From Cellulomonas sp. PhB143 (GTDB lineage: Bacteria > Actinomycetota > Actinomycetes > Actinomycetales > Cellulomonadaceae): a DNA stretch of 64,000 nucleotides. The DNA is taken from assembly GCF_003752595.1 (NCBI RefSeq), contig NZ_RKIJ01000012.1, positions 186,001 through 250,000 of the forward strand. Reading direction: 5' to 3'. The notes beneath the pieces were generated by a model. The model searched no databases. It worked only from the letters and a program-made list of their open reading frames with translations, and was not told the DNA's origin. Shown piece by piece: positions 11,512 through 35,991 of the stretch. Position 1 is the stretch's first letter; the number at the start of each line of letters is the position of its first letter. The translations under genes and the position numbers were made by a program.

Positions 11512-12048
11512 ATGACCGACGCGACCGACCCGACCGGCCTGGTGGACGGGCTCGTGCAGCTCTCCTTCCGCGTGCAGGCTGAGCTGGCGGACGTCGCCGC
11601 GGAGCACGGCCTGTCCGTCGTCCAGACCCGGATGCTCGGCATCCTGCGCGACCGCGAGCCCCTCATGCGCGAGCTCGCCGAGCACCTCGGCCTCGACCGG
11701 TCGAGCACGTCCGGGCTGGTCGACCGCGCCGAGCGCCGCGGTCTCGTGCGGCGCTCCCCCTCCACCCGCGACGGACGGGCGGTCCAGGTCGCGCTCACCG
11801 ACGCCGGTCGCGAGATCGCGCGTGCCGGCGAGGCCGAGATCGAGCGGCGGGTCCGCGCGCTGACCACCGCGCTGGACGACGACGGTCGCGCCGAGCTCGC
11901 GCGGCTCGCGGCGGCGGTCGTCGACGAGGACGCGCCGCCCGAGACGCACCCGCCGAGACGTCGAGCTCGGCCCCTGGATTCGAAGAATCAGGGGCCGAGT
12001 TCGACGTCTCGGCGGACGGGTGCCGGTCAGGCGTCGGACGCCGGGTAG
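11512..12048 (+). CDS. MarR-family transcriptional regulator
   Basis: 178-aa winged-helix regulator. The recognition region is LMRELAEHLGLDRSSTSGLVDRAE (split: LMRELAEHLG, LDRSSTSGLVDRAE) followed by the wing RRSPSTRDGRAVQVALTDAG. The conserved core ends near residue 145. The last 30 or so codons are read straight through a long palindrome (11950-12015) and give a low-complexity Arg/Pro/Ser tail, which is unusual. The ATG at 11512 fits the domain start. The stop overlaps the 3' end of the convergent GH2 gene by 22 bases. It is likely a redox or electrophile sensor controlling the divergent dehydrogenase. Confidence 0.9.
   Translation: MTDATDPTGLVDGLVQLSFRVQAELADVAAEHGLSVVQTRMLGILRDREPLMRELAEHLGLDRSSTSGLVDRAERRGLVRRSPSTRDGRAVQVALTDAGREIARAGEAEIERRVRALTTALDDDGRAELARLAAAVVDEDAPPETHPPRRRARPLDSKNQGPSSTSRRTGAGQASDAG
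11950..12015. repeat. Family A extragenic palindrome, copy 1
   Basis: Outer arms CCGCCGAGACGTCGA (11950-11964) and TCGACGTCTCGGCGG (12001-12015). Inner arms CTCGGCCCCTG (11966-11976) and CAGGGGCCGAG (11989-11999), with a G-U-type pair between them and apex ATTC-gaa-GAAT. It lies at the convergent ends of the MarR and GH2 genes and could terminate both. There is no U-tract. Confidence 0.85.
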
Positions 12049-15000
12049 GCGACCTGCTCGGTGATCGAGGCGGCCGCTCCGGAGGCGACCTTCGTGGTCA
12101 CGGTGACGCTGCCGGCCTCGAACGAGCCCCCGCGCGTGTTGAACGACTGGTAGGCGCTCTTGCCCGGCGCGACGGAGGAGAAGGACTTCTTCCCGAAGGG
12201 CGTCGTCACCGTCACGTCGACGGGGGCGTCGCCCCCGTTGAGCACGCGCACCGCGAGGTAGGCGAGGGCGCCGACCTTGCGCGGGTCGACGTCGACCGTG
12301 ACGACCGGTGTCGTCGTCGTGGCCAGGTTGTAGCCCTCCACGACGACGTCCATCGCCCCGCCGCGACCGGTCCAGGCGGCGTGCTCGAGCGTGAGCGTGC
12401 GCTCCTCGCCCGGCAGCAGCCAGACGTAGTTGTCGCTCGCGAACGCCGGCAGGGCGCGCTCGCCGGACGCACGGTCGCGCAGCGACACGCGCACCATCGA
12501 GGCGATCCTGGCACCCGTGTTGCGGACCGTGACCGCCCCGGTCCCGTCCGCGCGGTCCCAGGTCGCCTCCGCGGATACCGTCGTGCGGCCCACGTCGTTG
12601 AGCGACTGCATGTCCGTGTCCTTGCGGTAGCGCCAGTACACGTTCTCGGAGAGCAGGGTGCCGTCGGCGTCGTGCAGGCGCAGGCGCAGCAGGTGGGCGG
12701 CCGGCAGGCTCGCGCCGAACGCGACCTTCGCCAGGGCGGTGAAGGACGACGGGGCGACGTCGACGCCGTCGTCCGTCCGGGGGTCGGCGAGGCGCGTGCC
12801 GTCGAACCCGAACAGCTCGGTGGTCACCGAGGCGCCCTCCAGCGCGGTGCTCGTCTGGTTCACGGCGCGCACCGTCCAGTCCGTCGCGTCCGCCTGGACG
12901 TGCAGCAGCTCGCAGGCCTTGCGTGCCCCGTGGTAGCTGCCGTTGACGTCGAGGTCGTAGTCGTACGTCTGCCAGACCGTGCTGTGCCAGGCCGGGCTGG
13001 ACATCCACAGCAGCAGGCCCGACGACGGGTTCCACATCTTCGAGTTCCACGCCTCGAACAGGGCGCGCATGCTCTCGTAGTTGACGAACTGCGCCTTGGC
13101 GCAGAAGTCGTCCAGGCTCGTCCCGGCGCCGAGGCGCCTCTCGATGGCGTCCTTGTACCCGTTCGGGTTGGCCGCGCCCTTGGTGCTCCAGTCGTGCAGC
13201 CACCACGCGTCACCGGGGGGCCACTCCTGGCCCGTGCCGACAAGGTTGCGCATGCTCGCCGCCACGGAGACCGTCGGCAGCCCGACCTCGGTGTGGAAGC
13301 CGAAGCTGTTCCACGACCCGGCGCCGGTGTAGTAGCCCTCGGGCGAGGTGTACCAGTACGCCCCGCCGCCCGAGACGATGCCCTCGCGCGAGTTCGGGTG
13401 GTACAGCAGCGGCGTCAGATCGGTCACGGCCTTGCGCAGCCCGTCGTCGACCTCCTTGGGCGGCGTGCCCTCGTTGGCGCCGCACCACACCGCGAGGCAC
13501 GGGTGCGAGCGGTAGCGCAGGACGGTGTCGCGCGACTGCTCGACGAACACCGCGTGGTCCGGCGGGTCGAGGGTCCAGGCGAGCGGGAAGTCGTTCCACA
13601 CGAGGATCCCGTAGCGGTCGCAGGCGTCGTAGAACTCCTCGCGGTCGCTCGTGCCGAGCCACACCCGGATCATCGTGAAGTTCATGTCGCGGTGCATGCG
13701 CACCATCGCGTCGATGCGGCCGTCCGCACCGCGCTTGAGGAGCTCGTCCCAGCCCCAGTTCCCGCCGCGGCACAGGACGCGCACGCCGTTGACGCTGATC
13801 TGCAGCGGCGTCGCCCCGTTGTCGACGCTCGTGACGTCCGTCCAGGACTTCCCGTCGCTCGAGACCTGCACCCGGAACTGCGACGCGAGCGCCGACTCCC
13901 AGGCGATCTCGACCCGGTCGAACGTCGTCGCCGCGCCCAGGTCGAGCTGGATCCACTCCCCGTCCTTGTAGGCGGAGGACCAGCGGGTCTTCGGGTCGCC
14001 GTCGACCGCGAGCGGCGCCTCGTGCCCCGGCTGGTCGACGGACGACGCCGTCGCCGTCGCCCCCCGCGCCAGGTCCGTCGCCGCGTCCGCGCTGTCGCGG
14101 ACCGCGAGGCTCCACATCGAGATGCCCCAGCTGGACGAGCGCTTGTCGCCCACGATTCGCAGGTACCGCGCCGTCTGCCGGTCGAGCTCGACGGTCTGCT
14201 CGGCGCGGTCCTTGCCGTTCTCGACCGCGAAGGGAGGGTCGTAGTCGTAGTCGATCTGGCGCATGCCGAACCGCACCGTGCGCTCGTCGCTCGTGGTGCC
14301 GCCGACGCGCAGCGTCACGTCGAGATCGTGCAGCGCCGCCTCGCCGTAGCCGTGGGGCCACCACAGCTCGGGGTCCTGCAGGCGCAGGGCGGCGAAGTCC
14401 GCCGGGGCGAACGTCGCGTCCGCGGTCCCGCCGCCCGGGACCGTGACGGTCCGCTTCGCGGTCGCGCCGCCGACGGCGATCTGCACCTCGACCTGGCGGC
14501 TCCCGCTCTCCGCGTTGTGCACGGGAACGGTCACCGTCAGCTCGGCGGTGGACGTCGCCGGCAGGTCGGGCAGCGCGGTGTCGATGCGGGTGTCGCCGAT
14601 CCGCGCCGCGCCGGTGGACCGCAGGCGGACGTGGTTCCAGATGCCGCTCGCGCGGTCGCGGACGGCGGGCATCCAGTCCCAGCCGGTGACCGAGAGCCAC
14701 GTCGGCGAGGCCTGGTTGACCGTGCCCGAGCCGGCGTCGGTGTACGAGGCGCCGTCCTCCCCCTTGTCCCCGGGGCTCCCGGGCTTCGGCATGGGGCTGA
14801 TCTTCGCGGCGAGCGCCTGCGGGCCGGCGGCCGCGAGCGCCTGAGTGACGTCGTAGGCCGCGCGCGAGAACGGGTGAACCAGGGTGCCGAGGCTGGTGCC
14901 GTTCAGCCAGACGTCGGCCTGGTGGTTGATCCCGTCGAGCTCCAGCCAGACGTGGCGCCCGCTGCTGCGGTCCAGCGCGGCCGGGACCTCGAGCTCGCGC

Positions 15001-15944
15001 CGGTACCACCAGGCGTGCCGGGAGAGCGCCTCGGGCACGTTGAGGTTGTCCAGACCGAACACCGGGTCGGGCAGGTGACCCTGCTCGACCAGCGAGGCGA
15101 GCACCGTCCCCGGGACGGTCGCGGGCAGCCACGCGCTGGTGTCGACGCCGACGGTGGCGAGGGCCGCGCCGTCGTCCGGCCCGGCCCAGTCGTCGAGCGT
15201 GAGCCGCCACCCGGACTCCACGGGGACGGTGCCGTCGTCGGCCACCTCGAGGGCCGGGGCGGGGGTGTCGTCGCTGCCCCAGCGGGTCCAGCCGGTCGCG
15301 TCGGGGCGCTCGGCGCCGCTCGTGCCGAAGACCTGGAAGCCGTTGAGGCCGAGGGGGTTGGTCGTCGAGAGCTGCAGGCTGGTCAGCCGGACGTGCCGGG
15401 CGGTCACCGCGGCGTCGAGCGTGACGTCGACCGCGCCGCCCGTCGACGAGGTGGTGCTGTACACCGGCGTCCAGGCCTTCCCGTCCGTCGAGGTCTCGAT
15501 CCGGAAGGAGCTGGCGTAGCTGGAGAGGATCTCCGAGCCGTCGGTCCCCGCGCGCGGGTTGTCCCCCGAGGCGCCGACGAAGGCCTTGTCGCCCTCCTTG
15601 GCCTCGAAGACCAGGCGGACGCCGGTGATCGTGCATGACCCTTCGAGGTCGACGGCGATCCACTGCTCGGCGCCGTCGGCGGCGCGCCAGCCGGATCCGC
15701 GCACGCCCACCTCGGCGAGCCCGTCGACGGCGAACTGCGCCGGCGTCGGGGCGTGCGCCGTCGAGGAGACGCTGACCGGGCGGTCGGCGGCGAGGTCGAG
15801 CGCGCCCTCGGCGCGCGGCGCGCGGACCAGGGCCTGCGCGGCCCCCGGCACCGCGGTCGCGATCGCGACGCTCGCCAGCACCGTGGCGTTGACCTCGAGG
15901 AAGTGCCGGCGCGTGAGCCCGGTCTTCGCAGGTGAGTCCGACAT
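12027..15944 (-). CDS. Secreted (Tat) GH2 beta-mannosidase-like glycosidase with F5/8C domains and SAYQSF module
   Basis: 1305-aa exported enzyme. The N-terminus has a Tat signal (LTRRHFLEV at about 10-18). Then come an F5/8C (discoidin-like) module at about 48-210, and a GH2 sugar-binding domain from about 240. A second F5/8C module lies inside the GH2 architecture at about 615-740, between the immunoglobulin-like domain and the barrel. The catalytic barrel carries AVWCGANEGTPP (acid/base Glu after Asn) and FGFHTEVGLPTV (nucleophile Glu). The barrel resembles mannosylglycoprotein endo-beta-mannosidase and exo-glucosaminidase relatives. The C-terminal 90 aa carry GKSAYQSFNTRGG. Beside GH92, a role in N-glycan or mannan breakdown is inferred; exact specificity is not. 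Confidence 0.92.
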   Translation of the reverse strand: MSDSPAKTGLTRRHFLEVNATVLASVAIATAVPGAAQALVRAPRAEGALDLAADRPVSVSSTAHAPTPAQFAVDGLAEVGVRGSGWRAADGAEQWIAVDLEGSCTITGVRLVFEAKEGDKAFVGASGDNPRAGTDGSEILSSYASSFRIETSTDGKAWTPVYSTTSSTGGAVDVTLDAAVTARHVRLTSLQLSTTNPLGLNGFQVFGTSGAERPDATGWTRWGSDDTPAPALEVADDGTVPVESGWRLTLDDWAGPDDGAALATVGVDTSAWLPATVPGTVLASLVEQGHLPDPVFGLDNLNVPEALSRHAWWYRRELEVPAALDRSSGRHVWLELDGINHQADVWLNGTSLGTLVHPFSRAAYDVTQALAAAGPQALAAKISPMPKPGSPGDKGEDGASYTDAGSGTVNQASPTWLSVTGWDWMPAVRDRASGIWNHVRLRSTGAARIGDTRIDTALPDLPATSTAELTVTVPVHNAESGSRQVEVQIAVGGATAKRTVTVPGGGTADATFAPADFAALRLQDPELWWPHGYGEAALHDLDVTLRVGGTTSDERTVRFGMRQIDYDYDPPFAVENGKDRAEQTVELDRQTARYLRIVGDKRSSSWGISMWSLAVRDSADAATDLARGATATASSVDQPGHEAPLAVDGDPKTRWSSAYKDGEWIQLDLGAATTFDRVEIAWESALASQFRVQVSSDGKSWTDVTSVDNGATPLQISVNGVRVLCRGGNWGWDELLKRGADGRIDAMVRMHRDMNFTMIRVWLGTSDREEFYDACDRYGILVWNDFPLAWTLDPPDHAVFVEQSRDTVLRYRSHPCLAVWCGANEGTPPKEVDDGLRKAVTDLTPLLYHPNSREGIVSGGGAYWYTSPEGYYTGAGSWNSFGFHTEVGLPTVSVAASMRNLVGTGQEWPPGDAWWLHDWSTKGAANPNGYKDAIERRLGAGTSLDDFCAKAQFVNYESMRALFEAWNSKMWNPSSGLLLWMSSPAWHSTVWQTYDYDLDVNGSYHGARKACELLHVQADATDWTVRAVNQTSTALEGASVTTELFGFDGTRLADPRTDDGVDVAPSSFTALAKVAFGASLPAAHLLRLRLHDADGTLLSENVYWRYRKDTDMQSLNDVGRTTVSAEATWDRADGTGAVTVRNTGARIASMVRVSLRDRASGERALPAFASDNYVWLLPGEERTLTLEHAAWTGRGGAMDVVVEGYNLATTTTPVVTVDVDPRKVGALAYLAVRVLNGGDAPVDVTVTTPFGKKSFSSVAPGKSAYQSFNTRGGSFEAGSVTVTTKVASGAAASITEQVAYPASDA

Positions 15945-16140: not shown

Positions 16141-16188
16141 CTGGTTGCGCAAGATGGTGGATTAATCACTTCGCGGCAGGAACTCCCT

Positions 16189-16252
16189 CGCCGAGACGTC
16201 GAATTCCGCCCCTGGGTTCGAAGAATCAGGGGCGGAATTCGACGTCTCGGCG
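16189..16252. repeat. Family A extragenic palindrome, copy 2
   Basis: Two perfect 26-bp arms (16189-16214 and 16227-16252) with a 12-base apex containing TTCGAA. The inner arm core is AATTCCGCCCC/GGGGCGGAATT. It sits past the 3' end of the EF-G-binding-like gene on the minus strand and may terminate it before the GH2 promoter. Confidence 0.85.
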
Positions 16253-16319
16253 GACGGGCGGGACGGGCGGGGCGGGCGGGGCGGGGCGTGCCCGGGCGGA
16301 CCTGGGCCGGCCCGCCCGG

Positions 16320-16823
16320 TCAGCGCGTGCGCAGCACCTCGGCCACGAACCGCGCGGAGCGCTCGCGCAGCCCGGCGATGCGCCGCTCGACGATCTCCTC
16401 CGCCGCCGTGGCGTTGCCCGCCTCGGTGCGCGTCGGCGTGCGCCGGACGTTCGCCGAGCACACGAACTGCGTGCAGACCAGCGTGCCGATCGTGTTGCCG
16501 CGCTTGCCCGACGCCCCGCCGCGGCGCGCGACGTAGAGCGAGACGTCGTCGGTCACGACGACGTCCTCGCACCACGCGCACACGGCCTTGCGGCGGCGCC
16601 CGTCCGGGCTGGGGTCGCCGGCGCGCAGCAGGACGCCGGTGGGCGCGCCGTCCAGCTCGAGCACCGCGTACGCCGCGAGCGGCGCCTTCCGGTCGCGCCA
16701 GCCGAGGTAGTCGAGGCTCTCCCAGTCGATCGCGTCGAGGTCGGGGAGGGTGGCCTGCGCCGCCTCGCGCTTGGACGCGTTGACGAAGGACGCGCGGATC
16801 TGCTTCTCGTTCAGGGGGTTCAT
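16320..16823 (-). CDS. FBP/EF-G-binding-type treble-clef zinc-finger protein
   Basis: 167-aa protein. N-terminal half: MNPLNEKQIRASFVNASKRE and DWESLDYLGWRDRKAPLAAY, the pattern of FBP-domain proteins. C-terminal half: a four-Cys zinc knuckle (VCAWCEDVV ... CTQFVCSANVRR). The family is related to FusB-type elongation-factor-G-binding proteins that rescue ribosomes from fusidic acid. A translation-factor role is inferred from the family. It stands alone and is followed by a family A palindrome. Confidence 0.8.
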   Translation of the reverse strand: MNPLNEKQIRASFVNASKREAAQATLPDLDAIDWESLDYLGWRDRKAPLAAYAVLELDGAPTGVLLRAGDPSPDGRRRKAVCAWCEDVVVTDDVSLYVARRGGASGKRGNTIGTLVCTQFVCSANVRRTPTRTEAGNATAAEEIVERRIAGLRERSARFVAEVLRTR

Positions 16824-17092: not shown

Positions 17093-18328
17093 ATGGACGA
17101 GACCCGACCGACCCCCACCCCAGCCGACTCCGCCGACGACCGGGTCCGCGCGGTCCTTGCCGCGCACCCCGTCTGGGACGGGCACAACGACCTGCCCTGG
17201 GCCGCGCGCGAGCTCGGGGCGTACGCCCTCGACGGGCCGCGCGCCCTGGACCTGGCCGGCGGCACCGCCGGGCGCACCCACACGGACCTGCCGCGCCTGC
17301 GCGCGGGCGGCGTCGGGGCGCAGTTCTGGTCGGTGTACGTGCCCGCGCGGCTCGCCGGCGGGCAGGCGGTGACCGCGACCCTCGAGCAGGTCGACTTCGT
17401 GCACCGCCTCGTCGCACGCCACCCGGGCGAGCTCGCGCTCGCGACCACGGCCGACGACGTCGTCGCCGCCTGGGCGGAGGGCCGGGTCGCGAGCCTCATG
17501 GGCGCCGAGGGCGGTCACTCGATCGACTGCTCGCTCGGCGCCCTGCGCGCGCTGTACCGGCTCGGCGTGCGGTACCTGACCCTGACCCACAACGACAACG
17601 TGCCGTGGGCGGACTCCGCGACCGACGCGCCGTCGGCGCACGGCGGGCTGTCCGCGTTCGGTCGCGAGGTGGTCCGCGAGATGAACCGGCTCGGGATGCT
17701 CGTCGACCTCTCGCACGTCTCCGCCGGGACGATGCGGGCGGCGCTCGACGTCAGCGAGGCGCCGGTGATCTTCTCCCACAGCTCCGCCCGCGCCGTCTGC
17801 GACGTCCCGCGCGACGTGCCCGACGACGTCCTCGCGCGCCTCGCCGCCAACGGCGGCGTGTGCATGGTGACGTTCGTCCCCAAGTTCGTCACGCCCGCCG
17901 TCGCGCAGTGGCACACCGAGGCCGCGGAGGCGGCGGCAGCCGAGGGCGTGCGGTTCACGGACCTCGGGGAGTTCGAGCCGTGGATGGAGCGGTGGACGGC
18001 GCGCCACCCGCAGCCGACCACGACGCTGGCCGACGTCGTCGCGCACGTCGAGCACGTGCGGGAGGTCGCCGGCGTCGAGCACGTCGGCCTGGGCGGCGAC
18101 TACGACGGGGCGTCGGGCTTCGCGCCCGAGCTGGCGGACGTGTCCGGGTACCCGGCGCTGCTCGCGGCGCTGGCGGAGCGCGGCTGGTCCGACGAAGACC
18201 TGGGCCGCCTCACCAGCGGGAACGTGCTGCGCGCGCTCCGCGGGGCCGAGGACGTCGCGGCCCGGCTGCGGGACGAGCGCGCGCCGAGCGTCGCCACGTT
18301 CGAGGAGCTCGACGGGCCGGTCGCCTGA
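17093..18328 (+). CDS. Membrane-dipeptidase-type (M19) zinc dipeptidase
   Basis: 411-aa amidohydrolase-fold peptidase of family M19 (renal dipeptidase). Zinc-site motifs are in place: DGHNDLPW (His31, Asp33), [10 protein letters not shown] (bridging Glu139), then the two His regions ([11 protein letters not shown] and [11 protein letters not shown]), and [11 protein letters not shown] near the end. Length is normal for the family. The ATG at 17093 is chosen because the first zinc motif starts 30 residues in; an upstream GTG would add 15 residues with no match. No signal peptide is visible, so it is probably cytosolic. It hydrolyses dipeptides, including D-containing ones in some relatives. 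Confidence 0.93.
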
Positions 18329-18336: not shown

Positions 18337-18603
<267 letters not shown>

Positions 18604-18621: not shown

Positions 18622-21204
18622 TCAGCCCGCGCGCCCCGCGGTCTCCACGTTCCCCGCGGGCTCCTCCGCGTGCGGGTGCTTGCGCTCGAGCTTGGCGCCC
18701 TCCACGTCGACGTCCGGCAGGATCCGGTCGAGCCAGCGCGGGATCCACCACGCGCCCCGGCCCAGCAGGTGCATGAGCGCGGGGATCACGAGCATGCGCA
18801 CCACGAACGCGTCGACGAGCACGCCGAAGGCCAGCGCGAAGCCGATCGGCTGGATCATCGCGTCGTCCGAGAAGATGAACCCGCCGAACACCGAGATCAT
18901 GATGATCGCGGCGGCCGTCACGACGGACCGCCCGGCGCGGAACCCCTGCACGACGGCGACCCTGGCAGGTGCCCCGTGCGCGTACGCCTCGCGCATGCCG
19001 GAGCCGAGGAAGAGCTGGTAGTCCATCGCCAGCCCGAACAGGATGCCGACGAGGATCGTGGGCAGGAAGTTCAGGATCGGGCCCGGGTGGTCCACCCCGA
19101 ACACGCCTGCGAGCCAGCCCCACTGGTAGATCGCGACGACGCCGCCGAGCGCGGCGTAGTACGACAGCACGAACCCGGCGGTCGCGATGACCGGGACCAG
19201 GATCGAGCGGAACACGATGATCAGGATGATCAGCGACAGCCCGACGACGACGCCCAGGTACAGCGGCAGCGCGTCCGACAGCTTCTCGGAGATGTCGATG
19301 TTGCCGCTGGCCGCTCCCGCGACCCCGAGCGTCACGTCGCCGTCGACCCCGTCCACGTCGAGCGGCGACATGTCGCGCAGGGTGTGCACGAGGTCCTCCG
19401 TCGACTGGTCCGTGGGGCCGCCCGAGGGGAGGACCTGGAACGCGATCACCGAGCCGTCGTCGGACGTCCCGGCGGGGGCGACGGCCTCGACGTCGTCCTG
19501 CGCGCCGAGCTGCTCGGCGATGCCGAGCTCGACGGCCGTCGTGTCGTCGTCGGACACCGGGGCGGGCAGGTCGGCGACGACGAGCAGCGGGCCGTTGGTG
19601 CCGGGCCCGAACTTGTCGGCGACCGTCGTGTAGGCCTGGAAGGACGTGGAGTCCGGCGGCTGCGACGACCCGTCGGGCAGGTTGATCCGCAGGCTGAACG
19701 ACGGGATCGCGACGACCGCCAGCAGGACGATCCCGACGACCACGCGCCCGACGGCGACGATCGTGCGCATGGGCTTGACGGGTGCCGTGCCGGGGCCGGA
19801 CGGCACCGTCCCCGCCAGGTGCGCGGGGTGCGGGTGGTCGTCGGCGTGGGCGGGGTGCGGGTGGGCGGGCTGAAGCGCCGCCCGTTCCTTGCGCGAGAGG
19901 ATCCGCATCCCGATCGCGGACAGCAGCGCCGGAGTCAGGCTGATCGCGACGAGCACCGCGATGGCGACGCTCGCGGCGCCGACCGAGCCCATGAGGCCGA
20001 GGAACGGGATCCCGGTGACGTTGAGCGCGAGCAGGGCGATGACGACCGTCGTGCCCGCGAAGACGACGGCGTTGCCCGAGGTGCCGTTCGCGAGGCCGAT
20101 GGACTCGACGACGTCGTAGCCCTCCTTGAGCTGGCGCCGATGCCGGTTGACGATGAACAGCGCGTAGTCGATCCCGACGGCGAGGCCGAGCATCAGGCCG
20201 AGCACCGGCGTCACGGACGACATCTGCACGATCCCGGAGAGCGCGAGCGCGCCCATCGCGCCGATCCCGACGCCGACGAGCGCCGTCAGCAGAGGCAGGC
20301 CGGCTCCGATCAGGGTGCCGAGCATGACGAGCAGCACGACGGCGGCCACGACCAGGCCGGTGACCTCACCGGGTCCGATGAACGCCGGCGTCTCCTGGGC
20401 GATGTCCGAGCCGAAGTCCACACCCACGCCGTCGATCGAGGCGACGTCGTCCGTGAACGTGTCGATCACGTCGTCCTTGGTGGCCTGCGGGATGTCGAGC
20501 TGGGCGTCGGAGAAGACCACCGTCGCCACGGCCGCCGATCCGTCCTCCGAGACGGTGCGGATCCCCGAGGACAGGTCGAGGAGCTTCTCGCCCTGCTCGA
20601 GCTGCGTCTTCTGCGCGTCGAGGTCGGCGGCGTTCTTCTCGAGGGTCTTCGACTGCTCGTCCAGGGCGTCCTGCTGCGCGTCGAGCTGCGCGGCCCCTTC
20701 CTCCGCCTGCGCGGCGGGGGCGGCGGCGAGCGACTCCCGGGCGTCGTCGATCTGCTGCTGGCCCTGCTCGACCTGCGCACGGCCGTCGGCGATCTTGTCC
20801 TCGCCGTCCGCGATCTGCGACTTGCCGTCGTCGAGCTTGGCGGCCTGCTGCTCGCGCTGCGCCTGCGTCTGGAACGGGTCGACGACGTCCTCGACGCCGT
20901 CGATCTTCCCGACCTCCGTGACGGCGTCCGAGATCTGCTTCTGCTCTGAGTCGGTGAACGCCTTGCCGTCGTCGGTGGTCAGGACGACGGTCCCGGTCCC
21001 GCCCGCGGCCGCGGGCATCTCCTTCGCGAGCTGGTCGGTCACCTCCTGGGTGGGGGTGCCGGGGATGCTGAAGCTGTCGCTCAGCGTGCCGTGGCCGACG
21101 ACGTAGCCGACGCCGGCGAGCACGAGCACGGCCAGCCATGCGGCGATGACCACCCGCAGGTGGCGGGCCGCGCCGCGGCCGAGGCGGTAGAGGAGCTCTG
21201 CCAT
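18622..21204 (-). CDS. MMPL/RND-type membrane exporter
   Basis: 860-aa transporter of the MMPL (RND-like) family. It has a first membrane helix at about 18-38, then an extracytoplasmic loop with a long heptad-like Gln/Asp-rich region (about 125-215, e.g. QIADGEDKIADGRAQVEQGQ), a block of five helices with the family motif GLAVGIDYALFIVNRHR, a His-rich cytoplasmic stretch (AHPHPAHADDHPHPAHLAG), a second loop, and the second helix block with GLAMDYQLFLGSGMREAY. It exports lipids or hydrophobic compounds by proton motive force. The TetR gene 13 bases upstream is co-directional and likely controls it. Confidence 0.93.
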   Translation of the reverse strand: MAELLYRLGRGAARHLRVVIAAWLAVLVLAGVGYVVGHGTLSDSFSIPGTPTQEVTDQLAKEMPAAAGGTGTVVLTTDDGKAFTDSEQKQISDAVTEVGKIDGVEDVVDPFQTQAQREQQAAKLDDGKSQIADGEDKIADGRAQVEQGQQQIDDARESLAAAPAAQAEEGAAQLDAQQDALDEQSKTLEKNAADLDAQKTQLEQGEKLLDLSSGIRTVSEDGSAAVATVVFSDAQLDIPQATKDDVIDTFTDDVASIDGVGVDFGSDIAQETPAFIGPGEVTGLVVAAVVLLVMLGTLIGAGLPLLTALVGVGIGAMGALALSGIVQMSSVTPVLGLMLGLAVGIDYALFIVNRHRRQLKEGYDVVESIGLANGTSGNAVVFAGTTVVIALLALNVTGIPFLGLMGSVGAASVAIAVLVAISLTPALLSAIGMRILSRKERAALQPAHPHPAHADDHPHPAHLAGTVPSGPGTAPVKPMRTIVAVGRVVVGIVLLAVVAIPSFSLRINLPDGSSQPPDSTSFQAYTTVADKFGPGTNGPLLVVADLPAPVSDDDTTAVELGIAEQLGAQDDVEAVAPAGTSDDGSVIAFQVLPSGGPTDQSTEDLVHTLRDMSPLDVDGVDGDVTLGVAGAASGNIDISEKLSDALPLYLGVVVGLSLIILIIVFRSILVPVIATAGFVLSYYAALGGVVAIYQWGWLAGVFGVDHPGPILNFLPTILVGILFGLAMDYQLFLGSGMREAYAHGAPARVAVVQGFRAGRSVVTAAAIIMISVFGGFIFSDDAMIQPIGFALAFGVLVDAFVVRMLVIPALMHLLGRGAWWIPRWLDRILPDVDVEGAKLERKHPHAEEPAGNVETAGRAG

Positions 21205-21940: not shown

Positions 21941-22042
21941 GCGACGACACTAGGTGCATCGGTGCACCGAGTGCACCCACTGGGCCTGAGACCTTGCCCA
22001 CAGCGGCTCGCACGCCACCGCCACCGGCGCCACCCCGCCACC

Positions 22043-22102
22043 GCCGAACGCGTCATCAGTCGGCCCTTTGGGCCGTCTCGACCCACAGATGACGCGTTCG
22101 GC
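22043..22102. repeat. Family B extragenic palindrome, copy 1
   Basis: Outer arms GCCGAACGCGTCATC (22043-22057) and GATGACGCGTTCGGC (22088-22102). An inner hairpin CGGCCC-ttt-GGGCCG occupies 22061-22075. It lies immediately past the stop of the luciferase-like gene, in a terminator position. Confidence 0.8.
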
Positions 22103-22105
22103 CTG

Positions 22106-22981
22106 TCAGCCGAGCTCGGCGACCCGGCCCACCGCCGGCGCGACCTTGTCGCGGACCCACGCCGCGGGCGAGGTCTCCGGCGGGCGCAGGATCACGGTGT
22201 CCACGCCCCGCTCCGCGAACGGGCGCATCGCGTCCACGAAGGCGTCGACGTCGTCGCGCATCAGCTCCTCGCCCGCGGCGAGCGTGGTCACCCGGATCTC
22301 CGCGGGGTCGCGGCCGACGTCGTCGCAGTGCCGGTGCAGCACGTCGAGCTTGTGCGAGAGCTCGTCGGGCGTCTCGGCGAAGAGGTTGCAGGCGTCGGCG
22401 TACTGCGCGACCAGCCGCAGCGTCTTCTTCTCGCCCGACCCGCCGATCATGATCTCCGGGCGGCTCAGCGGCCCCGGCGAGCAGAGGGTCTGCGCGAGCC
22501 GGTAGTGGGCGCCCTCGAACGGGCCGTCGTTCTCCGGGTCGTACATCTGGCGCGCGATCTGCACGGTCTCCTCGAGCCGCTCGAAGCGCTCCTTGAGCGG
22601 CGGGAACGGCACGCCGAGCGCCTCGTGCTCCTCCTCGTACCAGGCCGCGCCGATGCCGTAGGTCGCCCGGCCGCCCGACAGCACGTCGAGCGTCGCGACG
22701 ATCTTCGCCAGCAGCCCCGGGTGGCGGTACGTCACGCCCGTGACGAGCACGCCGAGCTGCACGGTCTCCGTGCGCCCGGCCAGGTACCCGAGCGTCGTGT
22801 AGGCCTCGAGCATCGGGTCGGACGCCGGGAAGCCCGCCCGCACCATCTGGAAGTAGTGGTCCATGACCGACAGCCAGGACAGACCGGCCTCCTCGGCGGC
22901 GCCCGCCGTGTCGGCGAGCTCGTGGCGCAGGTCCTGCGGGGCGACCGCGTCATAGCGGTAGAGGTGTGCTCCGAGCTTCAT
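22106..22981 (-). CDS. Luciferase-like (F420-type) oxidoreductase
   Basis: 291-aa TIM-barrel oxidoreductase of the LLM superfamily. Motifs: MKLGAHLYRYDAVAP start strand, LSWLSVMDHYFQM (cofactor-side His), QLGVLVTGVTYRHPGLLAK, GRATYGIGAAWYEEEHEALG, RPEIMIGGSGEKKTLRL. These match the actinobacterial F420-dependent subgroup rather than FMN enzymes, so a hydride transfer from reduced F420 is inferred. Substrate unknown. It is monocistronic, flanked by family B palindromes on both sides (22043-22102 and 23030-23099). Confidence 0.88.
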   Translation of the reverse strand: MKLGAHLYRYDAVAPQDLRHELADTAGAAEEAGLSWLSVMDHYFQMVRAGFPASDPMLEAYTTLGYLAGRTETVQLGVLVTGVTYRHPGLLAKIVATLDVLSGGRATYGIGAAWYEEEHEALGVPFPPLKERFERLEETVQIARQMYDPENDGPFEGAHYRLAQTLCSPGPLSRPEIMIGGSGEKKTLRLVAQYADACNLFAETPDELSHKLDVLHRHCDDVGRDPAEIRVTTLAAGEELMRDDVDAFVDAMRPFAERGVDTVILRPPETSPAAWVRDKVAPAVGRVAELG

Positions 22982-23029: not shown

Positions 23030-23099
23030 CCACCGCCGAACGCGTCATCAGTCGGCCCGCGGAGCGGTTTCGACCCACAGGTGACGCGTTCGGCGGTGG
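23030..23099. repeat. Family B extragenic palindrome, copy 2
   Basis: Outer arms of 18 bp, CCACCGCCGAACGCGTCA (23030-23047) and TGACGCGTTCGGCGGTGG (23082-23099), perfectly paired. The centre shares the string GTTTCGACCCACAGGTGACG with small changes from copy 1. It lies between the luciferase-like gene start and the 3' end of the next minus-strand gene. Confidence 0.85.
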
Positions 23100-25534: not shown

Positions 25535-25846
25535 ACGCGGTGCGGCTCGATCCGGTGGTGTGCTCGGTCACGCGGAGTCCGGGCCGATGACGGTCCTGCG
25601 CGACCTGTCGATGCTACCCGCGGGCCGGGGCGACCCCGGCGCCGGGGACCGTGAGAGAGACCACCCGGTCCACCGCCGAACGCGTCATGAGTCGGCCCGC
25701 CGGGCGGTTTGGGCCGACTCATGACGCGTTCGGCGGTGGGAAGGGGGCCGCTCCGCGGCGGATGGTGGGGTGGCGGGCCCGGTGGGACGATCGGAGCGGC
25801 AGGCACGTCGCGCAGGCGTGCCGCGCACCCAGGGACGGAGACAGCC
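25535..25846. other. 312-base divergent intergenic region with a palindrome
   Basis: No gene. It separates the PAP2 and RidA starts and contains family B palindrome 3 (25670-25739). The left part may hold the PAP2 promoter; no good -35/-10 pair is visible. The right part leads into RidA without a strong Shine-Dalgarno (GGACGGAGACAGCC precedes the ATG). Confidence 0.6.
25670..25739. repeat. Family B extragenic palindrome, copy 3
   Basis: The most complete copy: 29-bp perfect arms (25670-25698 and 25711-25739), beginning CCACCGCCGAACGCGTCATG, with a 12-base centre GCCGGGCGGTTT. Unlike the other two copies it sits between divergent gene starts, so termination alone does not explain its position. 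Confidence 0.88.
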
Positions 25847-26257: not shown

Positions 26258-26666
26258 GGAGTCACGGCACGAGGAGTCACGGCACGTCAGCGTCTTTGTA
26301 CAATGCTCCCCTGCCGAGGTGTACACGTACGTCGTCGACCCCGCGCACCTGCCCGAGTGGGCCGCCGGGCTCGCGGCGGGCGTCGTGCAGGAGGGCGGCC
26401 GCTGGTTCGCCGACTCGCCGATGGGCCGCGTGGAGATCGCGTTCGCACCCGGGAACGATCTCGGCGTGCTCGACCACGACGTGACGATGCCGGACGGGCG
26501 CGTCACGTCGAACCCGCTGCGGGCCGTCGCGGCGCCCGGGGGCTCCGAGGTGATCTTCACCGTCCGGCGGGCCGGCGCGAGCGACGAGGACTTCGCGCGG
26601 GACGTCGCCGCGGTCCGAGCCGACCTCGAGACGCTGCGCCGCGTCCTCGATGCCCGCCGCCCCTGA
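26247..26666 (+). CDS. SRPBCC-fold protein
   Basis: 139-aa START/SRPBCC-fold protein: VSVFVQCSPAEVYTYVVDPAHLPEWAAGL is the classic opening helix-grip strand (split: VSVFVQCSPAEVYTYV, DPAHLPEWAAGL), followed by a strand series and a C-terminal helix VRADLETLRRVLDA. The only in-frame start is a GTG overlapping the RidA stop. The first codons come from a perfect 15-bp tandem duplication (26256-26285), so the true N-terminus is uncertain. The stop is followed at once by a family A palindrome. Ligand unknown; likely co-transcribed with RidA. Confidence 0.8.
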   Translation: MPPEESRHEESRHVSVFVQCSPAEVYTYVVDPAHLPEWAAGLAAGVVQEGGRWFADSPMGRVEIAFAPGNDLGVLDHDVTMPDGRVTSNPLRAVAAPGGSEVIFTVRRAGASDEDFARDVAAVRADLETLRRVLDARRP

Positions 26667-26732
26667 CCGCCGAGACGTCGAACTCTGCCCCTGGATCCGA
26701 AGGATCAGGGGCAGAGTTCGACATCTCGGCGG
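26667..26732. repeat. Family A extragenic palindrome, copy 3
   Basis: Arms 26667-26693 and 26706-26732, 27 bp with one mismatch. The inner core is AACTCTGCCCC/GGGGCAGAGTT and the apex GATCC-gaa-GGATC, where both sides changed relative to copy 1, a compensatory change. It begins directly after the SRPBCC stop codon and lies between convergent genes, so it is a strong terminator candidate. Confidence 0.88.
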
Positions 26733-26771: not shown

Positions 26772-27305
26772 TCAGAACCCCGCGAGCCGGCGGTAGCCCC
26801 GGTCGTGGAACACGAGCGGGGCCCGCCCGGGCCAGCTCTCGCAGCCGACGACGCGCACGACGACGAGCCGGCTCGACCCGGCCGCGACCCGGTCGACGAC
26901 GTCGGCGTGCAGCCAGGCCGCAGCGCCGTCGATCACCGGCTCCCCGCTCGCCAGAGGCCGCCACCCGCCCGCCGCGAACCGGTCGATGCCGCTCGTCGCG
27001 AACCGGGTGGAGATCTCCTCCTGCCCCTCGGCGAGGAGGCTGATCGCCACCGTGCTCGCCCGCGCGACCAGCGGCCACGAGCTCGAGCCCCGGGCGAGGG
27101 AGAACGCCACCAGCGGCGGCTCGGCGGAGACCGAGATCACCGACGTCGCCGTGAAGCCCGCGACCTGCCCGCCGACCCGCGTCGTGACCACGGCGACGCC
27201 CGCGGGATGGCCGCGGAACACGTCGCGGAACCGGTCCGGCGCGACGCCCGCGGGAGCGGGCACGGGCACCCCCACCAGGACCTCCCGGACGTCGACGGCG
27301 GTCAT
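26772..27305 (-). CDS. Flavin reductase (FMN-binding split-barrel)
   Basis: 177-aa flavin:NAD(P)H reductase-like protein. Motifs: FRDVFRGHPAGVAVVTTRVG, GFTATSVISVSAEPPLVAFS (flavin phosphate region), and a C-terminal GRAPLVFHDRGYRRLAGF. These partner two-component monooxygenases by supplying reduced FMN. It is the last gene of the operon running from 32116 down to here. Its start overlaps the stop of the FMN-reductase gene by four bases (ATGA). Confidence 0.9.
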   Translation of the reverse strand: MTAVDVREVLVGVPVPAPAGVAPDRFRDVFRGHPAGVAVVTTRVGGQVAGFTATSVISVSAEPPLVAFSLARGSSSWPLVARASTVAISLLAEGQEEISTRFATSGIDRFAAGGWRPLASGEPVIDGAAAWLHADVVDRVAAGSSRLVVVRVVGCESWPGRAPLVFHDRGYRRLAGF

Positions 27306-32116: not shown

Positions 32117-32134
32117 GGCTCGACTGTAGGTTTG

Positions 32135-32736: not shown

Positions 32737-32760
32737 GGCACCAGTCTCCCACCGGGAGAT

Positions 32761-32826
32761 CCGCCGAGACGTCGAGCTATGCCCCTGAACTGGCAGATCT
32801 CGGGGCGGAATTCGACGTCTCGGCGG
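32761..32826. repeat. Family A extragenic palindrome, copy 4 (degenerate centre)
   Basis: Perfect outer arms CCGCCGAGACGTCGA (32761-32775) and TCGACGTCTCGGCGG (32812-32826). The centre has diverged: only GCCCC (32781-32785) and GGGGC (32802-32806) still pair well. It lies between the Rrf2 start and the 3' end of the next MarR gene. Confidence 0.75.
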
Positions 32827-32859
32827 GCGAGCGCGGGCGAGGGCGGGCGAGGGCGGGCG

Positions 32860-33393
32860 TCAGGCGTCGGCCGACGACGCCGTCCCCGGCCGACGCTCCT
32901 GCACCGCCGCGCCGTAGGCCGTCACGAACCCCTCGAGGAGCTCGAGGAACTGCCCGGCGCCGTCGTCGCCCAGCGCCGCGAGGCCCTGCTCGAAGGCCCC
33001 GAGCGCGCTGACGATGTCCGTCTCGAAGGTGCGCAGCCCGTCGTCGGTGGGCTCGATCAGCCAGGCCGCGCGGCCCGGCTCCCGGTAGCGGCGCAGGATC
33101 CCCTCGGCCAGCGCGACGTGCACCTGCCGGTTCACGGTCGACTGCTCGAGCCGGAGCGTCTCGGAGATCTCGCGCAGCGTGCGGGGCCGGCGGTCGGCGA
33201 ACATCCACAGCAGCCGCAGGTCGGCCGTCCCGAGCGCGGCGTTCTGCTCGGAGACCCGCTGATGCTGGCCGAGGACCATGAGCATCCCCGCGACGGCGCG
33301 GTCCCTCCCGGTGCCCGGAGCGGTCCACGCCTCGTCCGCGCCCGTCCCGTCCGTGCCGGCCTCGCCCCTCGGCTGGGTGCTCGTCACCGTCAT
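32860..33393 (-). CDS. MarR-family regulator of the MFS pump
   Basis: MarR-type protein (177 aa from ATG 33393). HTH: RTLREISETLRLEQSTVNRQV (split RTLREISETLR, LEQSTVNRQVHVAL), wing RRYREPGRAAWLIEPTDDG. The ATG directly abuts an AGGAGG, so the GTG two codons later (33387), with a six-base spacer, may be the true start. It is divergent from the MFS gene and two perfect palindromes lie between them. Likely drug- or metabolite-responsive repressor. Confidence 0.88.
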   Translation of the reverse strand: MTVTSTQPRGEAGTDGTGADEAWTAPGTGRDRAVAGMLMVLGQHQRVSEQNAALGTADLRLLWMFADRRPRTLREISETLRLEQSTVNRQVHVALAEGILRRYREPGRAAWLIEPTDDGLRTFETDIVSALGAFEQGLAALGDDGAGQFLELLEGFVTAYGAAVQERRPGTASSADA

Positions 33394-33427: not shown

Positions 33428-33463
33428 TGTGTAGTATACACAGGTACTTGTGTAGGTTACACA
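33428..33463. promoter_or_regulatory. Twin MarR operators
   Basis: TGTGTA-gta-TACACA (33428-33442) and TGTGTA-ggt-TACACA (33449-33463) are perfect 6-3-6 palindromes 21 bases apart, two helical turns, so two dimers would bind the same DNA face. They sit between the MarR and MFS starts. The second site ends 22 bases before the MFS ATG. Confidence 0.8.
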
Positions 33464-33485
33464 TCTCCCACCGGACAGGACCACG

Positions 33486-34973
33486 ATGAACACCAGCCAG
33501 CCGACCCCGCCCTCGGGGGTCGTCGCCGCGACGCGGGCCGTGCCCGTCATCGCGGTGCTCTGCTTCGCGAGCCTCTGCGCCGCCCTCATGCAGTCCCTCG
33601 TCATCCCGATCCAGAGCGAGCTGCCCGAGCTGCTGAACACCTCGATCAGCACCGCCTCGTGGGTCGTCACGGCCACGCTGCTCGGCGGCGCGGTCGCGAT
33701 GCCGGTCACCGGCCGGCTCGCCGACGTGCTCGGCAAGAAGCCCGTGCTGGTCGCCTCCGCCGCGATCCTCCTCGTCGGCTCGCTGGTCTGCGCGGTCTCG
33801 GACACGGCGGGGCCGGTGCTCGTCGGCCGCGCGCTGCAGGGCGTCGCGATGGGCTACATCCCGGTCGCCATCAGCATGGTCCGCGAGATCGCGCCCGAGA
33901 ACATGCGCAACACGGCGGTCGCCGGGGTCAGCGCGACGCTCGGCGTGGGCGGCGCGCTCGGCCTGCCGCTCGCGGCCTGGCTCGCGCAGGACTTCGACTG
34001 GCACCTGCTCTTCTGGGTCTCCGTCGTCCTCGCCGCGGTCGTGACGGTCCTGTCCGCCACCGTGCTGCCGAACGTGCACGACGCCCACCCGGCACGCATC
34101 GACTGGCTCGGCGCCCTCGGGCTCGCCGTCGGGCTCGTCTCCCTGCTCGTCGGCGTCTCGAAGGGCAACGACTGGGGCTGGGGCGCGGCCTCGACGGTCG
34201 CGATGATCGCCGGCGGCGTCGTCGTGCTCCTGGTCTGGGGCTGGTACGAGCTGCGCCACCACGACCCCCTCGTCGACCTGCGCACGACGGCCCGCCGGCC
34301 CGTGCTGCTCACCAACCTCGCCGCCGTGCTCATCGGCTTCGGGATGATGGCGCAGTCGATCGTGGTCCCCCAGCTGCTGCAGCTGCCCGAGGCCACGGGC
34401 TACGGTCTGGGCCAGAGCATCCTCGCCGCAGGCCTGTGGATGGCGCCCGCCGGCCTCATGATGATGGCCTTCGCGCCGGTCTCCGCCCGTCTGCTCACCG
34501 GGTTCGGCGGCCGGGTCACCCTCGCGCTCGGCGCCTTCGTCATCTCGCTCGGCTACGTGGTGGCGCTGTTCATGATGAGCGCGCCCTGGCAGCTCATGGT
34601 CGCCTCGTGCGTCGCGTCCGCGGGCGTCGGGATCGGCTACGCCGCCATGCCCACGCTGATCCTCACGAACGTGCCCGCGCGCGAGGGCGCGTCGAGCGTC
34701 GGCGTGAACACCCTCATGCGGTCCGTCGGGACGACGGTCGCGGGGGCCGTGATGGCGGTCGTGCTCACGAGCCGCACCATGACCCTCGCGCCGGGCACGC
34801 CCGCCGTGCCGACGGAGGGCGCGTTCTCGCTCTGCTTCGTCATCGGGGCGGCCGCGGCCGCCGTCGGCGCGGTGATCGTGCTGCTCATCCCCCGCCGGGC
34901 GGGCAGCCAGGGCACCCCGGACCGGGCGCACGACGACGTGGCTTCCCTCGAGGAGGCCGCGCTCGCCGGCTGA
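33486..34973 (+). CDS. MFS drug-efflux transporter (14-helix DHA2 type)
   Basis: 495-aa major facilitator. About 14 hydrophobic helices; motif A reads GRLADVLGKKPVLVASA, and ALQGVAMGYIPVAISMVREI matches the helix 4 region. Length and helix number fit EmrB/QacA-like proton antiporters. The ATG follows GGACAGGACCACG. Divergent from its MarR regulator. A family A palindrome lies past the stop. Substrate unknown. Confidence 0.93.
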   Translation: MNTSQPTPPSGVVAATRAVPVIAVLCFASLCAALMQSLVIPIQSELPELLNTSISTASWVVTATLLGGAVAMPVTGRLADVLGKKPVLVASAAILLVGSLVCAVSDTAGPVLVGRALQGVAMGYIPVAISMVREIAPENMRNTAVAGVSATLGVGGALGLPLAAWLAQDFDWHLLFWVSVVLAAVVTVLSATVLPNVHDAHPARIDWLGALGLAVGLVSLLVGVSKGNDWGWGAASTVAMIAGGVVVLLVWGWYELRHHDPLVDLRTTARRPVLLTNLAAVLIGFGMMAQSIVVPQLLQLPEATGYGLGQSILAAGLWMAPAGLMMMAFAPVSARLLTGFGGRVTLALGAFVISLGYVVALFMMSAPWQLMVASCVASAGVGIGYAAMPTLILTNVPAREGASSVGVNTLMRSVGTTVAGAVMAVVLTSRTMTLAPGTPAVPTEGAFSLCFVIGAAAAAVGAVIVLLIPRRAGSQGTPDRAHDDVASLEEAALAG

Positions 34974-35004
34974 GTCCCCGGCGGTCCCCCGGCACCCGCC
35001 GCAC

Positions 35005-35070
35005 CCGCCGAGAAGTCGATTTCGGCCCCCAGATTCGAAGAATCGGGGGCCGAAATCGACTTCTCGGCGG
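35005..35070. repeat. Family A extragenic palindrome, copy 5
   Basis: Perfect 26-bp arms (35005-35030 and 35045-35070). The outer arm reads CCGCCGAGAAGTCGA, with A-T replacing the C-G of other copies on both sides. The apex is GATTC-gaa-GAATC. It is located between the convergent MFS and DUF1905 genes: bidirectional terminator candidate. Confidence 0.9.
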
Positions 35071-35088
35071 TCAGGATCGCCAGCGCGG

Positions 35089-35379
35089 TCAGGGGCCCGC
35101 GATCTCCAGGCGCAAGGTCACGACGTCGTCGAGCTCGATCCCCTCGGCGCGCCGCACCGCGGCCTTGAGCGGGACGGCATACCCACCGTCCTTCGGGAAC
35201 AGCGACGTGGTGAACGTCGCACCGCCGCACCGAGCGGTCACCGGGATCACGCCCCAGCCGTACGAGACCAGGCCGGCGACCTCGCCGATGCGCTCGGCCG
35301 CGTCGTCGGGCACCGTGACGAAGTGGTACGGGGACGGTCCGCGCCAGTACCAGACCGCCCCGGTGACCTCGAGCTCCAT
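35089..35379 (-). CDS. DUF1905-domain protein
   Basis: 96-aa protein matching DUF1905 in length and pattern: ELEVTGAVWYWRGPSPYHFV, then SYGWGVIPVTARCGGATFTTSLFPKDG and PLKAAVRRAEGIELDDVV (long stretch split: SYGWGVIPVTARCG, TFTTSLFPKDGGYAVPLK). The start at 35379 was chosen because the conserved region begins at the next residue. No function is established for this domain. Single gene, with a palindrome past its end. Confidence 0.85.
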   Translation of the reverse strand: MELEVTGAVWYWRGPSPYHFVTVPDDAAERIGEVAGLVSYGWGVIPVTARCGGATFTTSLFPKDGGYAVPLKAAVRRAEGIELDDVVTLRLEIAGP

Positions 35380-35469
35380 CGGGCCATCATGCGCCGGCGT
35401 GGCGCTGCGGGACAGCACGGGCGACAGGCGCAGGAGCGCCTGGTCCCGGCCGGCTCCCGGTGTCCGCCG

Positions 35470-35835
35470 CTAGACCGCCGTGCCCGTCCAGGCCGCCGCG
35501 GCGGCGAGCACGAGGAGCACCACGTTGAGCCAGACGTCCTGCCGCTCGCCGCGCGAGAGGTGCAGCGTCGCGGCGGCGACCTGCAGGAGCGCGAACCCGA
35601 CCGCGGCGGCGACCGCGAGCCGCGGCAGCACGCCGACGAGCGGCGGCAGCACGAGACCGATCGCGCCGAGCACCTCGAGGGCCCCGATCGTGCGCGTGAG
35701 CCCGAGCGGCAGGTCGTCGACCCAGCCCATCATCGGGCGCAGCCGGTCGCGGCTCTGGGTGAGCTTCTTCCCGCCGGCATACAGGTAGAACACGCAGAGC
35801 AGGACGGCAAGGATCCAGTACGCGACGATCATCAT
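35470..35835 (-). CDS. DoxX-family membrane protein
   Basis: 121-aa protein with four membrane helices: YWILAVLLCVFYLYAGGKKL, GLTRTIGALEVLGAIGLVLP, LPRLAVAAAVGFALLQVAAA, and a last helix VWLNVVLLVLAAAAAW. DoxX proteins associate with redox and thiol stress systems in actinobacteria, but function here is unassigned. No partner gene is adjacent. The ATG at 35835 is the first of two Met codons. Confidence 0.88.
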   Translation of the reverse strand: MMIVAYWILAVLLCVFYLYAGGKKLTQSRDRLRPMMGWVDDLPLGLTRTIGALEVLGAIGLVLPPLVGVLPRLAVAAAVGFALLQVAAATLHLSRGERQDVWLNVVLLVLAAAAAWTGTAV

Positions 35836-35925
35836 CTCTCCGGGTTCTCCAGGTGTGCGGCCAGCACATCATGGGGCATCGATGCCGGGTCCTCCGACCC
35901 GCGCCCGCCGCTCGCCGTCCCGCGT

Positions 35926-35991
35926 CCGCCGAGATGTCGAGTTCCGCCCCTGGAACCGGAAAAACCGGGGCGGAATTCGACGTCTCGGCGG
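35926..35991. repeat. Family A extragenic palindrome, copy 6
   Basis: Arms 35926-35950 and 35967-35991, 25 bp with two non-Watson-Crick positions. The inner core is TTCCGCCCC/GGGGCGGAA. The apex differs from other copies. It lies between divergent starts (DoxX and the ketosynthase), so it cannot be explained only as a 3' terminator. Confidence 0.82.

What the first reader, a model, noticed from the sequence alone, without database searches (positions are those of the whole stretch)
11950..35991. Family A: seven extragenic palindromes with compensatory changes
Copies at 11950, 16189, 18337, 26667, 32761, 35005 and 35926 share the outer arm CCGCCGAGA(C/A)GTCGA or a close form. The inner stems differ between copies, yet each stays paired (CTCGGCCCC/GGGGCCGAG, TTCCGCCCC/GGGGCGGAA, CTCTGCCCC/GGGGCAGAG, TTTCGGCCCC/GGGGCCGAAA). 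The apex also covaries (GATTC/GAATC versus GATCC/GGATC). That implies selection for the folded form. Several are at convergent gene ends, but copy 6 lies between divergent starts.
Basis: seen in the sequence. Interest (0 to 1): 0.75.

Follow-up and report, generated by a model that had tools for sequence, protein, structure and literature searches.

The report
Mobile 66-base palindromes at gene ends
This bacterium carries about 80 copies of a 66-letter DNA palindrome, mostly just after the ends of genes and a few spliced in frame into protein genes; related bacteria keep their own copies in place while the DNA around them changes, so it looks like a spreading DNA element that has been put to use at gene ends.

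Summary
The palindromes are real. Six of seven listed copies are intact, exactly 66 bp; the one at 18337 is broken by a mostly poly-G/poly-C stretch, probably an assembly artefact. At least 80 copies were collected from this 3.2-Mb genome, 79 of 66 bp, with strong covariation. By my gene searches are convergent, 29 tandem, 7 divergent and 8 in ORFs; seven of the eight share one phase and a similar peptide, in genes including ABC-F, UreF, P-type ATPase and AMP-ligase. Three such insertions are missing from congeners.

The family reaches Oerskovia, Cellulosimicrobium and Microbacteriaceae. Oerskovia species share copies at the same sites (core 90% identical, flanks 67%), with 100 double against 70 single stem changes.

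In one-way-transcribed copies G·T mismatches do not exceed A·C (14:18), and no T-run of 3 follows any copy. So covariation alone does not prove RNA selection; template switching fits as well.

Best reading: a mobile palindromic repeat partly co-opted as a bidirectional 3'-end hairpin. How it moves is unknown.

The parts
11950..12015 (.). Family A palindrome, 66 bp (25 of 25 outer pairs if G.T counts); in the 3' end of the predicted MarR ORF 11512-12048 (+), facing the end of ORF 12027-15944 (-)
16188..16253 (.). Family A palindrome, 66 bp; tandem context, 66 nt after the stop of ORF 16320-16823 (-); right flank a 9-bp tandem array
18337..18603 (.). Broken copy: outer-arm remnants (18337-18348, 18593-18603) around mostly poly-G then poly-C, probable assembly artefact; between convergent ORFs 17093-18328 (+) and 18622-21204 (-)
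26667..26732 (.). Family A palindrome, 66 bp; starts directly after the stop of ORF 26319-26666 (+), convergent with ORF 26772-27305 (-)
32761..32826 (.). Family A palindrome, 66 bp, the least perfect of the six; tandem (-) ORFs; right flank a 10-bp tandem array
35005..35070 (.). Family A palindrome, 66 bp; between convergent ORFs 33486-34973 (+) and 35089-35379 (-)
35926..35991 (.). Family A palindrome, 66 bp; between divergent ORFs 35470-35835 (-) and 36091-37299 (+)

Best explanation
Family A is a dispersed palindromic repeat, mobile in origin and of nearly fixed length: 66 bp in 79 of 80 own copies, 66 bp in 59 of 61 pattern-found copies from Oerskovia, Cellulosimicrobium and one doubtful record, 64-65 bp in 12 of 12 from Microbacteriaceae. 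Its arms carry the blocks CGAGA-N-GT and GCCCC separated by 8 bp that vary in sequence but stay complementary. SHOWN: copies exist in this genome that congeners lack, some in frame inside conserved genes; most copies sit just downstream of stop codons, above all between convergent genes; in Oerskovia, copies are kept at orthologous sites while flanks diverge. INFERRED: hosts keep them because, transcribed from either side, they make a roughly 30-bp hairpin that ends or protects transcripts, a bidirectional 3'-end element without a U-tract. INFERRED: arm complementarity is restored largely at DNA level, by template switching between arms, with selection removing broken copies. The agent that copies the element to new sites is not identified.
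For: At least 80 copies, 79 exactly 66 bp (model hits are also 66 bp but one). Of 72 intergenic copies 59 lie within 60 nt of an upstream stop; orientation 36 convergent, 29 tandem, 7 divergent against 15.9/41.9/14.2 expected from the gene pairs of the same loci (chi-square p about 7e-8; that null includes the element-bearing pairs); tandem copies nearer the stop than the start in 21 of 29, p 0.02. In 73 copies from other genera: 40 convergent, 25 tandem, 4 divergent, 1 inside, 3 at an edge. In-ORF copies: 7 of 8 in one phase with a similar peptide. Congeners lack the insert in the P-type ATPase (3 of 3), AMP-ligase (3 of 3) and ABC-F (2 of 3; the third has an unrelated long linker). Oerskovia, 16 usable ortholog groups, 82 pairs: core 89.7% identical, flanks 66.7%, unrelated flanks 53.7%; element more conserved than flank in 79 of 82; nearby DNA matches of 200 nt or more median 92%. 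The G003 counterpart of ORF 26772-27305 has a different 39-nt hairpin after its stop (one case, neighbours differ).
Against: No U-tract: longest T-run 2 in the 20 nt after the element, 80 copies, both strands. No wobble bias. No RNA data. 7 of 80 own copies and 10 of 77 in the Oerskovia set lie between divergent genes, where a transcript-end role makes little sense. Orthologous retention was measured only on copies that the model or pattern found, so lost copies are not counted, and the 82 pairs are not independent. The one in-ORF copy outside this genome, in Cellulosimicrobium sp. CUA-896, is in another phase. No mobiliser identified: no Y1 (RAYT-type) gene; other transposase families were not searched.
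Confidence: 0.5

Rival explanations
1. Purely selfish palindromic repeat (MITE/RPE-like) without host function. It collects after stop codons because insertion there does least harm; its palindromy is copied from palindromic parents and repaired by template switching.
For: In-frame copies in conserved genes. No wobble bias. For pneumococcal repeats, convergent enrichment was read as possible evidence of parasitic mobility (PMC3049150, passages).
Against: In Oerskovia, copies and their palindromy persist at the same sites while the flanks diverge. Near-constant length and shared blocks across genera (the blocks and a length of 64-68 were required by the search pattern).
Confidence: 0.27
2. Classical RNA terminator family under RNA-level selection: copies are hairpin terminators and compensatory changes came through G.U intermediates.
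For: 3'-end position, very stable folds, compensatory changes at orthologous sites.
Against: No U-tract; G.T 14 against A.C 18 in oriented copies; shared length and family consensus; palindromic copies in frame inside coding genes.
Confidence: 0.1
3. DNA-level site: the palindrome is bound as DNA (dimeric protein, nucleoid or roadblock factor) or extruded as a cruciform and acts as a barrier between neighbouring transcription units.
For: Blocks CGAGA.GT and GCCCC at fixed spacing on both arms, conserved in own copies found without that pattern as well as in pattern-found ones; fixed length; no wobble bias; some copies in divergent gaps.
Against: A duplex binding site would not need complementarity in the free 8 bp, yet most of the covariation is there. 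No candidate protein was sought.
Confidence: 0.12

Closest known systems
Rickettsia palindromic elements (RPE)
   Same: Palindromic repeats found between genes and fused in frame into conserved protein genes (PMC2229807 section 9; PMC10969869 passages).
   Different: RPE are 105-146 bp and described from Rickettsia (same sources); here 66 bp in Actinobacteria, mostly intergenic at 3' ends. No sequence comparison with RPE was made.
SPRITE of Streptococcus pneumoniae
   Same: Small interspersed repeat enriched between convergent genes and near 3' ends; co-option as terminator suggested (PMC3049150 passages).
   Different: SPRITE has an 18-bp duplex followed by a U-rich tract (same passages); here a near-perfect palindrome of 25 or more pairs without U-tract, with copies inside genes.
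REP/BIME with RAYT (TnpA-REP)
   Same: Short extragenic palindromes in many copies (recalled).
   Different: No Y1_Tnp gene in this genome; longer than typical REP (recalled).
Neisseria DUS inverted pairs acting as terminators
   Same: Repeats that form hairpins predicted to terminate transcription (mentioned in PMC3049150).
   Different: The arms listed here come almost always as pairs 51 bp apart, not as solitary short sites.
Coding palindromes in Nematomorpha mitochondrial genes
   Same: Inverted repeats inside translated genes (PMC6649704, abstract and outline).
   Different: There both arms encode conserved protein regions; here a dispersed repeat inserted into variable loops or tails.

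Membership tests
Miniature inverted-repeat transposable element (MITE) | Short, terminal inverted repeats, many copies | tested here: met
   66 bp, inverted repeat nearly throughout, at least 80 copies
Miniature inverted-repeat transposable element (MITE) | Target-site duplication | tested here: inconclusive
   None obvious by eye in the printed flanks of 80 copies; no formal test; congener empty sites too diverged to define junctions
Miniature inverted-repeat transposable element (MITE) | Autonomous relative with matching ends | not tested
   Only Y1_Tnp was searched
Rickettsia palindromic element (RPE) | In-frame insertion in conserved ORFs | tested here: met
   7 of 8 in-ORF copies in one phase; 7 of the 8 host ORFs scanned and all 7 have Pfam domains
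Rickettsia palindromic element (RPE) | Length 105-146 bp, Rickettsia | tested here: not met
   66 bp, Actinobacteria; RPE length from PMC2229807
REP with RAYT | Y1 transposase (PF01797) in the genome | tested here: not met
   0 matches in own genome; 5 of 14 control genomes rang
Rho-independent terminator / SPRITE | Hairpin just downstream of a stop codon | tested here: met
   59 of 72 intergenic copies within 60 nt of a stop
Rho-independent terminator / SPRITE | U-rich tract after the hairpin | tested here: not met
   Longest T-run 2 in 20 nt, 80 copies, both strands
Rho-independent terminator / SPRITE | Transcript 3' ends at the hairpin | not testable with these tools
   No RNA data
Rfam families | Match at gathering score | tested here: not met
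   0 in the window; on one copy 19 matches at E up to 1, all below gathering score, mostly miRNA hairpin families

The most novel reading that the evidence does not exclude
A palindrome family of Actinobacteria, not found described in my searches, copies itself to gene 3' ends and even in frame into proteins, and keeps both arms alike by DNA-level arm-to-arm copying rather than by RNA selection. Hosts have turned it into a bidirectional transcript-end device of fixed length that can stand in for unrelated hairpins at orthologous gene ends (one such case seen).
Probability: 0.3. Interest if true: 0.75.

Novelty: new variant of a known kind. Interest (0 to 1): 0.58.

Why it matters
Compensatory change is commonly taken as the best proof of a functional RNA stem. 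Here is a large natural set (tens of copies in a genome, orthologous copies across species, copies inside coding genes) in which arm complementarity can be tested against wobble tolerance, context and direction of transcription; the first such test shows no wobble bias. It also gives Actinobacteria a candidate parallel to Rickettsia palindromic elements, and a candidate for how convergent genes in a high-GC genome might end transcription without U-tracts.

Tried and rejected
Rfam: no match at gathering score; the sub-threshold hits on one copy look like generic long hairpins. RAYT as mobiliser: not found in this genome. Insertion into the loop of older C-rich/G-rich hairpins: flanks are C-rich left and G-rich right in each context class, but joined flanks do not pair better than shuffles (mean z -0.15; 7 of 80 below -2), so not supported. 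Uptake-sequence idea: listed arms come almost always in pairs (only the first 100 places listed). Gene contexts rest on my own codon-usage gene finder, not on annotation. Copies were collected from loci and stretches, not from the whole genome, so 80 is a lower bound. One search tried lengths 65-67 only (tried 55-79); 106 of its 186 loose candidates were dropped (fewer than 17 of 25 pairs, or more than 7 arm mismatches), all of them with 7 or more arm mismatches. The 67-bp copy was left out of alignment A3. Three of 19 Oerskovia groups that hold two members of one species were left out of the pair counts. In one search one of five measures, pairs with a double change (13 v 11.9), did not exceed shuffles (140 of 500). 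Literature: searches listed nothing that I recognised as this family; only listings were seen there (searches listed none), and most subscription papers are not held.

Full report
What is there. The window is G000:C4:186001-250000 of an unnamed 3.21-Mb genome; the window is 74% GC. Six of the seven reported palindromes are intact and exactly 66 bp. The seventh, at 18337, has outer-arm remnants around 244 bp of mostly poly-G then poly-C; I infer failed sequencing through the hairpin.

Genome-wide. From loci and stretches I collected 80 distinct copies, 79 of 66 bp and one of 67 bp. On 79 aligned copies with 25 outer pairs, 96.7% of cells pair (shuffled 91.0%), 9 pairs show double changes (shuffled 4.8), 118 cells do (shuffled 44.9), and the covariation score is 0.152 (shuffled 0.052); 0 of 500 shuffles reach any of these, and sliding the partner by 1-3 columns destroys the signal.

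Position. With my own gene caller, 36 copies are convergent, 29 tandem, 7 divergent and 8 inside predicted ORFs. Of 72 intergenic copies, 59 lie within 60 nt of an upstream stop. Tandem copies are a median 27 nt from that stop and 73 nt from the next start, nearer the stop in 21 of 29 (p 0.02). Orientation differs from the gene-pair expectation of the same loci (p about 7e-8). No copy is followed within 20 nt by a run of 3 or more T on either strand.

Copies inside genes. Five lie mid-gene: a protein with two ABC_tran domains (ABC-F by my reading), UreF, an FHA-domain protein, a P-type ATPase and an AMP-binding ligase. The others form an MFS C-tail, a MarR C-tail (window 11950) and an uncertain N-terminus (L058, not scanned against Pfam). 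Seven of the eight share one phase and read (S/P/T)AE..(S/N)SAP......GAE(F/L)..SA(D/E); the MarR tail is in another phase. The chance of 7 of 8 in any one phase is about 0.008. The one in-ORF copy found outside this genome, in Cellulosimicrobium sp. CUA-896, is in a different phase. 66 is a multiple of three. In congeners the P-ATPase and ligase orthologs lack the insert in 3 of 3; the ABC-F ortholog lacks it in 2 of 3, the third having an unrelated long linker; for UreF one ortholog was compared, poorly aligned and without the insert; the FHA gene was not resolved. So these are most simply derived insertions, in variable loops; junctions cannot be defined at this distance. For an intergenic copy, the G003 gap matching window 32737-32859 on one side is 36 bp and holds no palindrome.

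Relatives. That pattern fixed CGAGA.GT, GCCCC and a total length of 64-68, so only the other columns are informative: in 55 of the sequences (20 of them own copies, not pattern-found) the 8 free positions pair in 424 of 440 cells, and there are 230 double-change cells in all (shuffled 83.9); one measure, the number of pairs with a double change, does not exceed shuffles (13 v 11.9). With model R2, 46 of 150 family genomes match at 1e-5, 7 of 7 Oerskovia genomes at 1e-3 and 23 of 396 order genomes at 1e-7; searches used strict filters. The three congeners have 1-3 weaker places each, against at least 80 here. So: an old family, patchily amplified. Among 73 copies from other genera 40 are convergent, 25 tandem, 4 divergent, 1 inside and 3 at an edge.

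Orthologous sites. 77 Oerskovia copies from six species form 19 flank-defined groups. In 16 usable groups, 82 pairs, core identity is 89.7% against 66.7% for 40-nt flanks (unrelated flanks 53.7%), higher than the flank in 79 of 82; BLAST matches of 200 nt or more in the surrounding DNA have a median of 92%. Changed stem pairs (positions 5-25): 100 double Watson-Crick, 70 single, 2 double with a non-pair; 34 of 82 comparisons carry two or more compensated pairs. These pairs are not independent, and sites where the element was lost are not counted. In this Oerskovia set 46 are convergent, 21 tandem and 10 divergent.

RNA or DNA? If RNA pairing were selected, G.U should outlive A.C on the transcribed strand. 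In 62 tandem copies the counts are 14 G.T and 18 A.C (own 7/11, Oerskovia 1/2, Cellulosimicrobium 6/5). That is no bias (p 0.60) and far from 80% (p 7e-6; the 80% is my assumption). Over all 25 pairs in 37 own tandem or in-ORF copies it was 8 v 14. Palindromy is also kept in in-ORF copies (161 of 168 pairs). Template switching is described as able to produce multibase compensatory changes and to homogenise inverted-repeat arms (PMC8794818, PMC8604942; abstracts). I therefore separate two claims: constraint on the site (supported in Oerskovia) and the origin of arm matching (likely in good part DNA-level).

Mechanism. Most likely: a mobile palindrome without a known mobiliser (no Y1_Tnp; others not searched), tolerated or favoured after stop codons, retained as a bidirectional 3'-end hairpin. 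In congener G003 the counterpart of ORF 26772-27305 (73% DNA match) has another, 39-nt hairpin after its stop (L131:2967-3005): one case consistent with interchangeable 3'-end hairpins, with other neighbours. In Streptomyces, convergent 3' overlaps and RNase III effects on some pairs are reported (PMC3765725 passages); RNase III processing of this stem is conceivable but untested.

Known kinds. It works like SPRITE in position (PMC3049150 passages) but lacks the U-tract; like RPE in in-frame insertion (PMC2229807 section 9) but differs in length and host; it fails the RAYT test for REP. I file it as a new variant of small palindromic mobile repeats.

Side result. In this genome 24 of 80 copies abut short tandem arrays: 25 of 160 flanks, against 3 of 74 control 3' flanks, 7 of 154 Oerskovia flanks and 1 of 160 shuffled flanks (Fisher p 0.01 and 0.001). 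Within 60 nt CCGCC is abundant on the left (126 v 16 GGCGG) and GGCGG on the right (101 v 23 CCGCC), as if the element's ends had been reiterated outward, perhaps by replication slippage at the hairpin base (inference).

Noticed in passing
window 18337-18603: Outer-arm remnants of a family A copy enclose 244 bp of mostly poly-G then poly-C, probably a sequencing/assembly artefact at the hairpin; worth correcting before annotation.
   Followed up: partly
window 22038-22107, 23030-23099, 25670-25739: A second palindrome family (B, 70 bp, arm CCACCGCCGAACGCGTCAT..GTCGGCCC) with 56 arm matches genome-wide at up to 3 mismatches, control 0, some 73 bp apart in an array (C1:344389-344596); a copy also in congener G003 (L134:1306-1375). 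Its arm contains CCGCCGA, the tip of family A.
   Followed up: partly
flanks of own-genome copies, e.g. window 16254-16300 and 32827-32860, L113 right of 2487, L118 left of 2001: Tandem arrays with periods of 7-17 bp abut 24 of 80 elements; CCGCC is enriched to the left and GGCGG to the right in all context classes; rarer arrays and no base skew in Oerskovia.
   Followed up: partly
L065:1501-1568 (G041), L269:1501-1566 (G003), L276:1501-1565, L277:1501-1564: Other members of the order carry palindromes of about 64-68 bp with different stems but a similar plan; possibly a wider superfamily.
   Followed up: no
Oerskovia loci such as L154, L175, L201: The arm ..GAGAAGTGAG.. seems to supply the stop codon (TGA) of a neighbouring gene: gene calls end 14 nt inside the element.
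   Followed up: no
L156, L171 (record QAPD01, labelled Sphaerisporangium cinnabarinum ATCC 31213): Elements like those of Cellulosimicrobium in a record labelled Sphaerisporangium; possibly mislabelled or contaminated, not checked.
   Followed up: no
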